Positions 1,208 to 21,574 of a stretch of DNA of 21,934 nucleotides are shown here, piece after piece. Positions within the stretch are counted from its first letter, which is position 1. Every line of letters begins with the position of its first letter. The notes beneath the pieces were generated by a model that searched no databases, was not told where the DNA came from, and saw only the letters and a list, made by a program, of their open reading frames with translations. A program made the position numbers and the translations under genes. This DNA is from a virus: positions 1 through 21,934 of IMG/VR virus record IMGVR_UViG_3300036864_000137. One strand, given 5' to 3'.

Positions 1208-1218
1208 AATAGAAGAGC

Positions 1219-1247
1219 CCCCGACGCTGGGGGAGTCAGCGCCGGGG
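1219..1247. terminator. Bidirectional hairpin between integrase and late operon
   Basis: CCCCGACGCTG (1219-1229) pairs with CAGCGCCGGGG (1237-1247) over 11 bp with one A-C mismatch and a 7-base loop. It lies between the convergent ends of the integrase (stop at 1207) and the last late gene (stop at 1268). Read on the minus strand it is followed by CTCTTCTATTT, a moderate T-rich tract; on the plus strand no T tract follows. It therefore best fits a terminator for the late operon and may also protect the integrase message. Confidence 0.5.
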
Positions 1248-1267
1248 AAGGAAAAGGAGGGAAGCGG

Positions 1268-11494: not shown

Positions 11495-11941
11495 CTAGCC
11501 GATCTCGAGCACGTAGTAGCTGGGGACGCCGTAGTCCGTGTTGGCCCCGATGCCCTGCGTCACCGTGCGGACGCGATAACCGGACGGGAGCAGCAGCGGG
11601 TACGGCAGCGAACCCGAAGAGCGGATGTTGGGAGTCGCCCCGATCTGGCCTGTCAAGGGCAGCGAGGGCGCCCACGAGTAGGCCGCTGTGGTGCTCACTG
11701 CCTGAGCCGCAGACGTGCCTGGCGATTCCAAGATGACGTTGGCTCCGTCATCGATCTGCAGGATCGGGAGCGGAGTCTGCGTAATGCCCTGGACAAGCTG
11801 CACGTTTACGCAGAGCAGCAGCCAGAACTTGCCGGCGGGGACCGCGTCACTGACTTCTGAACCCGCGGCCGGATTGGCGCCGGCAACCCGCTTGTAGACC
11901 CAGATGTTGCTGGGAAGCGGAAGGTCAGCCACGCCGCTCAC
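11495..11941 (-). CDS. Virion structural protein, possible head decoration
   Basis: 148 residues, nearly all beta (KFWLLLCVNVQLVQGITQTP, then PLPILQIDDGANVILES), with LPSGYRVRTVTQGIG near the end. This looks like a small beta-sandwich found in the head region of related phages. The GTG start at 11941 overlaps the end of the gene before by 17 bases; another GTG at 11932 gives a smaller overlap. No transmembrane segment or enzymatic motif is present. Decoration or minor capsid function is inferred from its place between capsid and connector genes. Confidence 0.6.
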   Translation of the reverse strand: MSGVADLPLPSNIWVYKRVAGANPAAGSEVSDAVPAGKFWLLLCVNVQLVQGITQTPLPILQIDDGANVILESPGTSAAQAVSTTAAYSWAPSLPLTGQIGATPNIRSSGSLPYPLLLPSGYRVRTVTQGIGANTDYGVPSYYVLEIG

Positions 11942-12152
11942 CCCGCTTGACCCCGGGCTCGTCCGTGGCTTCCTCGAGGTCGGGACGGAGCGGAGCCTTG
12001 GCCGGCTCGAAGAGATCCGCGCGCTCCTTCACGAAAGGATGGTTGGCGCGGAAAAGCTCGCCTCTTGCCACGAAGACGGGCTTGTCCTGGTACGTGGTGT
12101 GGAAGCTTTCCTTCGCCACCACAAGATCGGAACCGGCTGCTTTCTTAGGCAT
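11925..12152 (-). CDS. Small head-region protein
   Basis: 75 residues beginning MPKKAAGSDLVVAKESFHTT and containing RGELFRANHPFVKERADLFE, then an acidic, charged tail. The G..v.A.HP.VK.R..LF motif is frequent in small proteins encoded just after phage capsid genes. The start is firm: AGGAGG lies 7 bases before the ATG at 12152. That ribosome site sits inside the last codons of the LAGLIDADG gene, consistent with the endonuclease having inserted between the capsid gene and this one. The function is unknown. Confidence 0.75.
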   Translation of the reverse strand: MPKKAAGSDLVVAKESFHTTYQDKPVFVARGELFRANHPFVKERADLFEPAKAPLRPDLEEATDEPGVKRGERRG

Positions 12153-12489
12153 GCATCTGCCTCCTGTTAGGTGATGGTCGAAGACGATGGACAAAGGCGA
12201 GGATCGTCTTGGCTCGCGTTTGGCGACGAGAACCGAGCCAAGGCCAGAAGGCCGCGATCAGTGCTTGGACTGTTTCATGGCGGCCGGCGACCCAGCGAAA
12301 TTCTCGATCCTGTTCGTATTTGTAGATCTTCCCGAAGCCGACGATGCGTCGGAACCGATTGATCACATCCTCGTCATTGGTCGCGAGGATTGCTTGAACC
12401 GTCGGTGCTTTCCCACCAGTGATCGTCAGGCAGCCCTCGCCTTCGAAAAGGCCAGCCGCCCACGCGATGTCCGAAACGGGAGCGAGCAT
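12145..12489 (-). CDS. LAGLIDADG-type homing endonuclease (free-standing)
   Basis: 114 residues from ATG 12489. A single LAGLIDADG-like motif reads AAGLFEGEG (residues 11-19), with Glu18 at the usual catalytic acid position. The rest follows the one-motif pattern: TNDEDVINRFRRIVGFGKIY in the middle and a late helix after WPWLGSRRQTRAKTILAF. One-motif enzymes work as dimers that cut long target sites and spread their own gene. The gene is free-standing, not in an intron or intein, and lies between the capsid gene and a small head gene, where it overlaps the latter by 8 bases. GGGAG is 7 bases before the ATG, but both are inside a hairpin. A TTG at 12516 is a weaker alternative start. Confidence 0.8.
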   Translation of the reverse strand: MLAPVSDIAWAAGLFEGEGCLTITGGKAPTVQAILATNDEDVINRFRRIVGFGKIYKYEQDREFRWVAGRHETVQALIAAFWPWLGSRRQTRAKTILAFVHRLRPSPNRRQMHA

Positions 12490-12502
12490 GAGCCCGCTCC
12501 CG
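12477..12502 (-). promoter_or_regulatory. GC-rich hairpin covering the endonuclease start; possible terminator after capsid gene
   Basis: On the minus strand CGGGAGCG pairs perfectly with CGCTCCCG; inside, a G/T opposition is followed by two more pairs and a TCAT loop. The loop and its closing bases carry the ATG start of the endonuclease, and the 5' arm holds its GGGAG. It begins 19 bases after the capsid stop and is followed by TTTCGG, so it may act as a partial terminator as well as a translation switch. The palindrome is seen directly; its role is inference. Confidence 0.6.
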
Positions 12503-12520
12503 CCTTGTGTTCTCAACCCT

Positions 12521-14071
12521 TTACGTCACTTTAAGGAACTTGAATTGAGATTCTGAAAGCGTCTTGCCGCCGTTGCGCCAGAACGCATACAGAGCGCGCT
12601 GGCCGATCGGGTATCTGCTCGTCGGTCCGAAGATGTGCGAAATGACCTCCATCGACATGCCCACCCGATCAGCGATCAGGTAGTAGCGGAAGTCGCCCAT
12701 GAGCAGGATTCGGTTCCCGGTCGTGACCGCGTTGAGCATCTGCGAGCTCTCGTAGACCGGATAGCCCAGGCCTTCGGCTCCGGTGTTGCCGTTGCCGCCC
12801 GAGCTTGACGGCGAGTTGCGGAGGCCCTGCGGGAAGTAGAGCCACAGCCCCGCCCCGCCCTGGGTGTCGAACTGGCGGATCTTGTTGAGGATCGCCTTGT
12901 TGCCGACGATGGTCGAACGCGGTCGGGCCCGAGGAACGACGTTCTCCTCGAGCTTGTAGGTGTCGCCGATCGCGAACGTTGCCGCCGTCGCGGTCGCCAC
13001 GTCGGCGCCAGTGCTCATGGCGTTCAGTCCGGTCGGCTCGTTGGTGCCTGAACCAGAGAAGAACTTGGCCGATTCCAGGTCGTCCTTGGCGTCTGCAACC
13101 AAGCTGGCCATCTCGCGCTGCAGGCCTGCCCAGTCCTGATCGGACTCGATCGAGAAGGGCACCAAGGCCTGCGCCCGGACCGCGTCCACGGTGGGCTGGG
13201 TCAGGGTCGGCGAGTTGTCGGTTGCCTCGGTTCCCTCAGCCGCGTAGGCCGCAGTGATCGCCCCAGAGGTCGCCCCGCGCCACTGGTTGACGACGATCTG
13301 CTCCGTGCGGCAGATTGCGCGCCAGGGGTTGACGACGCTGTTGGAGGTCGGGATGATCGTCGGATCGAGCTGGTAGGGGATCGGGATGCCGGTCGTGCCC
13401 AGCCCGAGGGCACGCTCAGCAGCCATCGTGCGCTCGTAGGCCCGCTGCTCCTCGGTCGTGAGGCTGACAGCCGCCACGTTGCGCATCTGCGCGATCAGCA
13501 GCTTGACGAAGGCCCGCTTGTAGGACGGGTCGCCAGTGGCGAGCAGGTAACGCGAGAAGGAACCGGACTCGTCGTCCTGCTCCAACAGGCGCTCAACATG
13601 CTCCTTCGCCTGGTCGGACGTGAAGCCGTAGACCCGCGCGTCTCTGCGATCGCGGGTCAGCGGGAAGTCCGCGATTTCGATGGCGCGCTTGGCGCGCTCA
13701 TGGAACTGCTCTCGCGCCCGGCCCAGGTTGCCCCAGTCGGCCCGGATCGTCGAGAGGTCGTAGATGTCGCGCTCGCGGTTGGTGCCCTTGGCGTCACGCG
13801 AACCGAGGATCTGCTCCTCGCGCTCCACGTTGGCAGGGTTCCTAGCCATGCGCTCGAGATCGCGCTTGCGAGCCTCGAGCTCGATGATGCGACCCTCGAC
13901 CGCACCATCGTCGTCCTTGAGCTTCTTGTACTCCTCTCGCACTTCGGGAGGAAACGGAAGGCCTGCGTGGTCCTCATTGACCTTGGCGATCTCTCCACGC
14001 AGCTCGCGCTGGTAGGCCGCCAGGTCCTCGATGGAGCGCAGGCTGTCGAGTTCTACGAATTCGAAAGCCAT
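12521..14071 (-). CDS. Major capsid protein, HK97 fold
   Basis: 516 residues. An N-terminal charged coiled-coil part (about 8-100; DLAAYQRELRGEIAKVNEDH, then RIIELEARKRDLERMAR) acts as the scaffolding delta-domain in this family and is usually removed by the prohead protease. The body from about residue 230 has family hallmarks: RTEQIVVNQWRG, LVADAKDDLESAKFFSGSG, GTNEPTGL, and a C-terminal FGPTSRYPIGQRALYAFWR followed by FKFL. The ATG at 14071 has GAGGAG 8 bases upstream; a GTG three codons earlier lacks spacing to it. The start overlaps the protease gene by 19 bases. A hairpin follows the stop, often seen after capsid genes. Confidence 0.93.
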   Translation of the reverse strand: MAFEFVELDSLRSIEDLAAYQRELRGEIAKVNEDHAGLPFPPEVREEYKKLKDDDGAVEGRIIELEARKRDLERMARNPANVEREEQILGSRDAKGTNRERDIYDLSTIRADWGNLGRAREQFHERAKRAIEIADFPLTRDRRDARVYGFTSDQAKEHVERLLEQDDESGSFSRYLLATGDPSYKRAFVKLLIAQMRNVAAVSLTTEEQRAYERTMAAERALGLGTTGIPIPYQLDPTIIPTSNSVVNPWRAICRTEQIVVNQWRGATSGAITAAYAAEGTEATDNSPTLTQPTVDAVRAQALVPFSIESDQDWAGLQREMASLVADAKDDLESAKFFSGSGTNEPTGLNAMSTGADVATATAATFAIGDTYKLEENVVPRARPRSTIVGNKAILNKIRQFDTQGGAGLWLYFPQGLRNSPSSSGGNGNTGAEGLGYPVYESSQMLNAVTTGNRILLMGDFRYYLIADRVGMSMEVISHIFGPTSRYPIGQRALYAFWRNGGKTLSESQFKFLKVT

Positions 14072-15147
14072 TTGAGCCACTCCTCGTCGGATTTGAATGT
14101 TGGTTGGACGGTTACGACACCTTCGCGGCGCTCCTTCCCGAGGTGCGGCTTGGCCGCGGCGTCAGGCGTGGAGGGTGCGATTACGTGGTGGTGCTCGAGC
14201 AGCTCGCGCATCTTCGGGTCGCTAACCAGGCGCTCGAGCAGGAACTCATCGGTCAGCGAGCGCACGCCGGCGGTTGCACCGGCATAGGCGGGAAACGTAA
14301 CTGGACCGAACTCTTCGACCTGAGTCTCCTTGACGATGCGCTCAGGGAGTCCTTCCGGGTTGTACGCGGAAGCCTTCGGCTTGTTGACGAACTCCTCGCG
14401 CGTCACCCGGAAGCGGAACGAGGCGCCATAGAGCCCCGCAGTCAGTCCTTCCATCACCAATTCGGGGATGCCTCGGAAGAGCGGGACTTCGTAGTAGGCG
14501 CCCGTGTCGTCCTCTTCGAGTTTGGAGATCGCGCCGAGCGGCTTCGAGCCGAGCATCGGATCTCGTCCATGCTGGAAGAGCACGCGCATCACGTCGCGGT
14601 TTTCTTTGAAGGTCTTGGTGAACGCTCCGGGTGCGATCGACTCCATGAAGCGACCCTCGAAGACGGAGTCGATCTCGGTCCACTGGTTGAAGACCGCGAA
14701 GTGCCCGTGCATGGTCGGAGCGCCAGCACCGTCCTCGGCTGCGCGGAGTTCCGGTCCAGGTCGCAGCGCCCGCACCAGGCTGTCCCTCGGTGGCCTCGCG
14801 TTCGCGGAGGAGGCATTCTGGATCGCCGCCAGATGCGCCTCGAGGTGACGCTGAGCGGCCTCGCGGTTGGTCAGCCCTTGCGTCTGAGGCAGCCGCGAAA
14901 GCGAGTTCCGAACCCCATCTGCGTTCGGTGCCGCACCTGGCCGCTTGTGATGCGGCAGAGCCCATGAAGACTGGAGCGCGGCATCGCCCGACTTGCGGCC
15001 GGCGCAGATCGACTCATAGCAGGACGCTGGCGTGTCCGAGCTCGCGCAGTTGCTCATGGCGGCCGGACCGTCCCAAGCGGAGTTATCCACGGCTCGGCTG
15101 TTCAGATGCTCGTGTTCGTCGTCCAGGCAATCGAGGCAGTCAGACAT
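14053..15147 (-). CDS. Prohead maturation protease (HK97/S78-like) with N-terminal extension
   Basis: 364 residues in two parts. Residues about 145-300 are a caudovirus prohead protease: His193 in VLFQHGRDPMLGSKPLG, Ser243 in LYGASFRFR, and acidic residues at 278-279 in VEEFGPVTFPAY give a plausible triad. It would remove the capsid delta-domain during head maturation. Residues about 18-110 are a separate module, with AVDNSAWDGPAAM and Cys34/Cys43/Cys48, then GDAALQSSWALPHHKRPG, then LSRLPQTQGLTNREAAQRHL; I recall this module from other phage proteins but no function. The first 15 residues are Cys- and acid-rich. GGAGG is 4 bases before the ATG, and the gene overlaps the capsid start. Confidence 0.88.
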   Translation of the reverse strand: MSDCLDCLDDEHEHLNSRAVDNSAWDGPAAMSNCASSDTPASCYESICAGRKSGDAALQSSWALPHHKRPGAAPNADGVRNSLSRLPQTQGLTNREAAQRHLEAHLAAIQNASSANARPPRDSLVRALRPGPELRAAEDGAGAPTMHGHFAVFNQWTEIDSVFEGRFMESIAPGAFTKTFKENRDVMRVLFQHGRDPMLGSKPLGAISKLEEDDTGAYYEVPLFRGIPELVMEGLTAGLYGASFRFRVTREEFVNKPKASAYNPEGLPERIVKETQVEEFGPVTFPAYAGATAGVRSLTDEFLLERLVSDPKMRELLEHHHVIAPSTPDAAAKPHLGKERREGVVTVQPTFKSDEEWLKWLSNS

Positions 15148-20875: not shown

Positions 20876-21574
20876 TCAGACTGCAAGAGGTATCTGCTCT
20901 CCCTCTTGACCAGCGCCGCGAGCAACGTTGCATCGGAGATGTGCTGGCCGGAGATTGGTAAGGTCGTCTGTCCCACCGCTTGAGCGTGGTAGGACATGGT
21001 CGATTGACCCAGACGACGGGTGTGGCCATCTCAAGGTCAGCTTGATGGGCTTTCGGCAAATCCAACACTTCGCCCCGAACATCGCGATGACTTCCGCAAA
21101 ACTGAATGCTTGGTGGAAGCCCCATCGGCGCCGACGTCGGTTCTTCTGCTGACATGCAGGTCGACAGAAGATCTGAGTCAGGCTAGCGATCTGGAATGAA
21201 CGGCCGCATTCTCGGCACTCTCGCTGAGCCGCAGCGATGCGCGCGCGAAAGCGGCACTTTTGGGAGCAGAATCTCCTTCGATCCGACGGACGGCAGGTAA
21301 ATTCAGACTCGCAGGCCTCGCAGCGTCGGGTGACAACGGACCTCCCGGTTCTTTGAGCGGCATCGCTGCAGAGCCGCGAGCAGAACTTCCGCTTGGCGCT
21401 CGGCGCGTCCCAGAAGGTGCTGCCACAACGCATGCAACTGATCTCAACCTTCGCCGTGGGGCGGGGCCGCCTGGGCCTGTGAACGTAGGATCGCTTACGG
21501 CGATATTTGTTGTACGCCCGTTGATACGCTAGGCGCTCCTCGCGGTGCTGGCTGTAGTAGGAGTTCGAGACCAA
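20876..21574 (-). CDS. HNH endonuclease with three N-terminal zinc ribbons
   Basis: 232 residues. Three Cys4 modules come first: C47xxC50...C65xxxC69, C85xxC88...C103xxxC107 and C120xxC123...C137xxxC141. A basic linker (NRRRRRWG) leads to the HNH nuclease: CWICRK, SIDHVLPRSSGGTDDLTN (Asp192, His193, catalytic), then NLRPAHLRCN. HNH proteins next to terminases take part in cos cleavage in HK97-like phages; others are homing enzymes. The TTG start at 21574 has a perfect GGAGG 5 bases upstream. The stop is four bases before the small terminase start, so the gene is translated together with the packaging genes, favouring a packaging role over a pure homing role. Confidence 0.88.
   Translation of the reverse strand: MVSNSYYSQHREERLAYQRAYNKYRRKRSYVHRPRRPRPTAKVEISCMRCGSTFWDAPSAKRKFCSRLCSDAAQRTGRSVVTRRCEACESEFTCRPSDRRRFCSQKCRFRARIAAAQRECRECGRSFQIASLTQIFCRPACQQKNRRRRRWGFHQAFSFAEVIAMFGAKCWICRKPIKLTLRWPHPSSGSIDHVLPRSSGGTDDLTNLRPAHLRCNVARGAGQEGEQIPLAV

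What the first reader, a model, noticed from the sequence alone, without database searches (positions are those of the whole stretch)
12477..12516. Homing endonuclease start codon buried in a GC-rich hairpin right after the capsid gene
The ATG and its GGGAG lie in the loop and arm of a 26-base hairpin with an 8-bp perfect GC-rich stem. Phage homing endonucleases such as T4 I-TevI are known to be silenced by RNA structures that hide the ribosome site. Here the same element could stop part of the capsid transcripts and also lock endonuclease translation, keeping the gene quiet amid highly expressed late genes.
Basis: partly seen in the sequence, partly recalled or inferred. Interest (0 to 1): 0.6.

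Follow-up and report, generated by a model that had tools for sequence, protein, structure and literature searches.

The report
Endonuclease start inside conserved capsid hairpin
In this phage a selfish DNA-cutting gene begins inside a strong RNA hairpin; the hairpin is not the gene's own device but one that most related phages carry just after their capsid gene, so the cutter is probably kept quiet by a structure that was there before it arrived.

Summary
The hairpin is real (minus strand, 12502-12477): an 11-bp stem with a 4-nt loop. The Shine-Dalgarno GGGAG lies in the 5' arm and the ATG at the loop/3'-arm edge of a LAGLIDADG endonuclease gene. The predicted cost of opening its ribosome site (28 kcal/mol) exceeds all 209 control gene starts and all 66 other starts in the endonuclease family.

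The hairpin is, however, not an endonuclease device. A comparable GC-rich hairpin follows the capsid stop codon in 53 of 71 non-redundant relatives (1.7% in shuffles), including about 75% of those without the endonuclease, the closest relatives (67% capsid identity), and cultured Gordonia, Rhodococcus and Mycobacterium phages. It has no U-tract. The endonuclease family as a whole has more accessible starts than controls. Best reading: an older capsid 3'-end hairpin (U-less terminator or mRNA 3'-end protector) at whose edge a free-standing homing endonuclease settled, so its start is now occluded. A parallel exists in T7-like cyanophages, where relatives of this endonuclease start directly after the capsid gene's canonical terminator. 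No expression data exist for any of this.

The parts
12477..12502 (-). Post-capsid hairpin, 11-bp stem, loop TCAT (extended stem with weak pairs 12474-12505)
   Evidence: Fold and inverted-repeat search, strongest stem on this strand of the window, homologous position conserved in relatives
12497..12501 (-). Shine-Dalgarno-like GGGAG in the 5' arm, 7 nt before the ATG
   Evidence: Sequence; predicted fully paired
12145..12489 (-). LAGLIDADG homing endonuclease gene, 114 aa from ATG 12489; start codon in loop/3' arm of the hairpin; its stop overlaps the start of the next gene
   Evidence: PF00961, phrog_5046, 80 viral relatives, I-AniI weakly in PDB, E=0.0005
12521..14080 (-). Major capsid gene (HK97 type), complete; its stop is 18 nt upstream of the hairpin
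   Evidence: PF05065, phrog_10, aligned to its C-terminus with six relatives
11925..12152 (-). Head-tail connector gene; in relatives without the endonuclease it or another head gene follows the hairpin directly
   Evidence: phrog_9538; L082/L083 arrangement

Best explanation
The hairpin is the window's copy of a structure that this group of (mostly actinobacterial-type) phages keeps just after the major capsid gene. It most likely marks or protects the 3' end of the abundant capsid mRNA, as a U-less terminator/attenuator or a barrier to 3' exonucleases, lowering expression of what follows. A free-standing LAGLIDADG homing endonuclease gene was later inserted between this hairpin and the next head gene. 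In this phage its SD and ATG lie inside the hairpin, so read-through transcripts are predicted to be translated very poorly. Shown: the hairpin, its conservation without the endonuclease, and the predicted occlusion. Inferred: order of events, transcript-end role, low translation.
For: Strong stem within 110 nt of the capsid stop in 53 of 71 non-redundant loci vs 1.7% of shuffles; 47 of 63 endonuclease-free loci within 70 nt; other gene ends 0-15%. Closest relatives L082/L083 (67% capsid identity) have a 13-bp hairpin at nearly the same distance from the stop and no endonuclease. Same in cultured Gordonia, Rhodococcus and Mycobacterium phages and in Prauserella and Streptomyces prophages. Stem sequences differ (52 of 53 distinct 5' arms), so structure is what is kept. 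RBS opening cost 28.1 kcal/mol, 0 of 209 controls as high. Parallel in cyanophages: endonuclease ATG directly after the capsid terminator, terminator kept in P-RSP2, which lacks the endonuclease there.
Against: No expression data. No U-tract (1.06 T per 8 nt vs background 1.01), so termination is uncertain. 18 of 71 loci lack a strong stem within 110 nt, including endonuclease carriers L013, L015, L030 and L080, though L015 and L030 have interrupted hairpins. The host is unknown. A stem as strong is expected about once per 22 kb by composition. Order of events rests on distribution, not on a reconciled tree.
Confidence: 0.65

Rival explanations
1. T4-type switch: the hairpin was selected as a regulator of the endonuclease, hiding its ribosome site on long capsid transcripts and released on a transcript that starts inside the hairpin.
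For: SD and start codon fully caught in the stem; precedent in I-TevI, SegB, MobE (PMC2988022, PMC3014915).
Against: Hairpin present without the endonuclease; no promoter-like site found there (sigma-70 consensus only); relatives of the endonuclease do not share occluded starts.
Confidence: 0.1
2. The endonuclease gene is a decaying or silent passenger: insertion and truncation left its start in the capsid hairpin and its end in the leader of the next gene, and it is no longer effectively expressed.
For: Highest opening cost of all starts compared; it lacks the C-terminal zinc-finger-like part found in most post-capsid relatives; its stop overlaps the connector start.
Against: Open frame and LAGLIDADG motif intact; many other family members also lack the C-terminal part.
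Confidence: 0.2
3. The hairpin is a chance inverted repeat without function in this phage.
For: About one stem of this strength is expected in 22 kb of such composition; the 91-nt z-score is only -2.25.
Against: Three quarters of relatives have one at this place with different stem sequences.
Confidence: 0.05

Closest known systems
RBS-sequestering hairpins of T4 I-TevI/II/III, T4 segB and Aeh1 mobE (PMC2988022, PMC3014915)
   Same: A stable hairpin catches the SD (and here the start codon) of a phage homing endonuclease gene.
   Different: Those are endonuclease leaders, several with a late promoter that yields hairpin-free transcripts. Here the hairpin is a capsid 3' element shared with phages lacking the endonuclease, no such promoter was found, and the enzyme is LAGLIDADG rather than GIY-YIG or HNH.
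T7 terminator T-phi after capsid gene 10 (PMC5592923)
   Same: Hairpin directly after the major capsid gene; downstream head genes depend on read-through.
   Different: Here there is no U-tract and no termination data; the polymerase is presumably the host's.
U-less 'I-shaped' terminators of mycobacteria and U-poor terminators of Streptomyces (PMC12288462, PMC12207403)
   Same: Long GC-rich stem within 50 nt of the stop codon, little or no U-tract.
   Different: Described for host genes and disputed in mechanism; here in phage capsid mRNAs and untested.
T4 segD between capsid gene 23 and gene 24 (PMC2988022)
   Same: Free-standing endonuclease next to the capsid gene whose expression would need terminator read-through.
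   Different: segD is GIY-YIG and antisense to its neighbours; here the gene is in sense with its start inside the hairpin.
LittleE gp14 in the capsid-gene intron (Cluster J mycobacteriophages, PMC3706429)
   Same: Relative of this endonuclease located at a capsid gene.
   Different: LittleE's capsid gene is annotated with a putative group I intron and the endonuclease is antisense; the window's capsid gene is whole and Rfam finds no intron.

Membership tests
LAGLIDADG homing endonuclease (PF00961) | LAGLIDADG motif and domain | tested here: met
   Motif AGLFEGEG; PF00961 23.3 bits vs cut-off 23.1; weak I-AniI match; large phage family
LAGLIDADG homing endonuclease (PF00961) | Site-specific cleavage of an endonuclease-free allele and homing | not testable with these tools
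   Endonuclease-free alleles exist (L082, L083), but cleavage needs biochemistry
Intron-encoded endonuclease | Host gene split by an intron core | tested here: not met
   Capsid gene complete to its C-terminus; no Rfam match in the window
T4 I-TevI-type regulatory hairpin | SD/start codon sequestered in a stable stem | tested here: met
   SD unpaired probability 0; opening cost 28.1 kcal/mol, highest of all compared; prediction only
T4 I-TevI-type regulatory hairpin | Internal promoter giving transcripts without the 5' arm | tested here: inconclusive
   No sigma-70-type match near 12489-12516, but other promoter types are not covered
T4 I-TevI-type regulatory hairpin | Hairpin belongs to the endonuclease gene | tested here: not met
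   Hairpin in 47 of 63 endonuclease-free capsid loci; endonuclease relatives lack occluded starts
Canonical intrinsic terminator | GC-rich hairpin followed by a U-rich tract | tested here: not met
   Window tail TTTCGG; 53 loci average 1.06 T per 8 nt, equal to background; not listed by the terminator scan
U-less actinobacterial (I-shaped) terminator | Strong stem within about 50 bp of the stop codon, no U-tract | tested here: met
   Stem starts 18 nt after the stop; median 14 nt in relatives
U-less actinobacterial (I-shaped) terminator | Transcription ends at the stem | not testable with these tools
   Needs RNA 3'-end mapping; host unknown

The most novel reading that the evidence does not exclude
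The post-capsid hairpin is a group-wide, structure-conserved control element of capsid mRNA in these phages, and one family of homing endonucleases repeatedly settles on the downstream edge of such capsid 3' elements in unrelated phages (HK97-type actinophages and T7-like cyanophages), using the phage's own stop signal to keep itself quiet and tolerated.
Probability: 0.3. Interest if true: 0.6.

Novelty: new variant of a known kind. Interest (0 to 1): 0.42.

Why it matters
It turns a single-gene curiosity into a testable general feature: a hairpin conserved in structure but not sequence after the capsid gene, also present in cultured Gordonia, Rhodococcus and Mycobacterium phages, where RNA ends can be measured. 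Because these hairpins lack U-tracts, they are natural test objects for the dispute over whether actinobacterial RNA polymerase stops at U-less hairpins. It also suggests a simple way for homing endonucleases to be tolerated in late operons: sit at the capsid gene's own stop signal.

Tried and rejected
1) A second, weaker hairpin hiding the SD of whatever gene follows the capsid (suggested by eye in L008, L150, L153, L158): rejected, since post-capsid starts are on average more open than control starts (median SD unpaired 0.475 vs 0.37). 2) A pseudoknot between the hairpin loop TCTCCCGG and the SD region CCGGGAGA in L091 and L098: seen by eye in two loci only, not followed. 3) Occluded starts as a trait of this endonuclease family: rejected. 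4) Group I intron: none found. 5) Near-exact copies of the hairpin with embedded ATG in IMG/VR: none. 6) Shared N-terminus MLA(S/P) in L007, L036, L039 as sign of a common leader: in the three loci printed there is no such hairpin. 7) L119, where an ATG with SD also falls in the hairpin: the similarity to the connector begins well after that ATG, where a later in-frame start could serve, so I do not count it as a second case. 8) Capsid search with the single sequence found nothing; the alignment search did.

Full report
WHAT IS THERE. The window is an uncultivated virus record of 21,934 bases from IMG/VR, completeness not given, with a late operon on the minus strand: terL 20506-19076, portal 19124-17367, protease 15147-14053, major capsid 14080-12521, LAGLIDADG protein 12489-12145, head-tail connector 12152-11925, then further connector and tail genes. 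GGGAG (12501-12497) sits in the 5' arm, 7 nt before ATG 12489, whose first two bases are in the loop. The alternative TTG 12516 has no properly spaced SD, and I see no other in-frame ATG/GTG/TTG between the hairpin and the LAGLIDADG motif. Homologues begin at a similar distance before the motif, so ATG 12489 is the likely start.

HOW UNUSUAL. With 80 nt upstream and 40 nt downstream, freeing the ribosome footprint costs 28.1 kcal/mol; none of 209 control starts from neighbouring phage genes is as high (95th percentile 21.9), nor is any of the other 66 starts in the endonuclease family. The stem is the strongest on the capsid-coding strand of the window. Yet about one such stem is expected by composition in 22 kb, so significance must come from position and comparison.

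COMPARISON. A search with an alignment of seven capsids returned 80 viral loci. After removing near-duplicates, and with the loci included, 71 capsid genes with downstream sequence remained. A strong stem lies within 110 nt after the stop in 53 (75%), against 1.7% in shuffles; within 70 nt, in 47 of 63 loci without the endonuclease. Ends of other genes show it far less: portal 1%, terL 5%, connectors 0%, protease 15%. Stems are not alike in sequence (52 of 53 distinct 5' arms, 43% mean identity), so it is structure that is kept. The nearest relatives, L082 and L083 (67% capsid identity), lack the endonuclease and have a 13-bp hairpin at nearly the same distance, followed directly by the connector gene. 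Cultured phages RavenCo17, Eyre (Gordonia), REQ1 (Rhodococcus), Brujita and Mycofy1 (Mycobacterium), and prophage regions in Prauserella and Streptomyces scabiei, share it; prophiGD90-1 and some others do not.

THE ENDONUCLEASE. It is a single-motif LAGLIDADG protein with relatives in many phages. Eight of the 71 capsid loci have a relative directly after the capsid (window, L008, L013, L015, L021, L030, L080, L098). Where those other loci have a post-capsid hairpin, the likely start lies downstream of it. Among 53 hairpins I found no second credible gene start with SD inside the stem. The family as a whole has more open starts than controls (median 11.8 vs 14.0 kcal/mol, p=2.7e-5). So hairpin locking is not the family's habit; it follows from where this copy sits.

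A PARALLEL. In T7-like cyanophages, relatives of the endonuclease (L081/L179, L180, L182, L183-L185, L186) start immediately after the U-tract of a canonical terminator-like hairpin (e.g. GAGGGGGTCTAAGGATCCCCTCTTTTTATG), about 54 nt after a capsid gene (phrog_267 for L081; the others share its C-terminus). P-RSP2, with an 84% identical capsid and no endonuclease annotated there, keeps a terminator-like hairpin at the same place. The same endonuclease family therefore sits at the capsid gene's 3' signal in two unrelated phage groups. T4 segD, next to capsid gene 23 and terminators, is a comparable known case (PMC2988022).

MECHANISM. Most likely the hairpin serves the capsid mRNA. T7's T-phi is the classical precedent for a hairpin after the capsid gene that leaves later genes to read-through (PMC5592923). 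Here the stems lack U-tracts (1.06 T per 8 nt, background 1.01). Mycobacteria are described as using U-less 'I-shaped' terminators within 50 bp of the stop, but a study with the opposite conclusion is cited in the same review (PMC12288462), and Streptomyces terminators are U-poor with long stems (PMC12207403). Termination, attenuation and 3'-end protection cannot be told apart from sequence. For the endonuclease, occlusion follows from the predicted fold; ribosomes finishing the capsid gene stop 18 nt before the stem and, by inference, would not melt it. Whether the gene is quiet but active, or decaying, is open: motif and frame are intact, but it lacks the C-terminal zinc-finger-like part of most post-capsid relatives, and its end runs through the next gene's SD.

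VERDICT. Observation confirmed. Interpretation partly supported: locked start yes (predicted), dedicated endonuclease regulator no. The more general object is the post-capsid hairpin itself. I found no paper describing it as a group-wide feature, but only an open-access library was searched with a few queries, so that absence is weak evidence.

Noticed in passing
window 1218-1248, minus strand: Second-strongest hairpin on the capsid-coding strand (12 pairs), followed by CTCTTCTATT; a candidate terminator for the late operon.
   Followed up: no
window 20876-21574, minus strand: HNH endonuclease gene upstream of the large terminase gene (phrog_1271, E=1e-25).
   Followed up: no
L091 and L098, first 100 nt after the capsid stop: The hairpin loop TCTCCCGG is exactly complementary to the SD region CCGGGAGA of the next gene, a possible pseudoknot or loop-SD pairing.
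   Followed up: no
L008 4945-4985: The endonuclease after the capsid has a 9-bp hairpin GTCGAACCT-GGACAGG-AGGTTCGAC placing the SD in its 3' arm right before ATG, in addition to the capsid hairpin; not a family-wide trait.
   Followed up: partly
L179-L186 and L081, around the capsid/endonuclease junction: In T7-like cyanophages the endonuclease ATG directly follows the U-tract of the capsid terminator-like hairpin, and P-RSP2 without the endonuclease keeps that hairpin.
   Followed up: partly
L024 4571 onwards: One open frame holds two LAGLIDADG domains of this family in tandem, followed by a zinc-finger-like tail.
   Followed up: no
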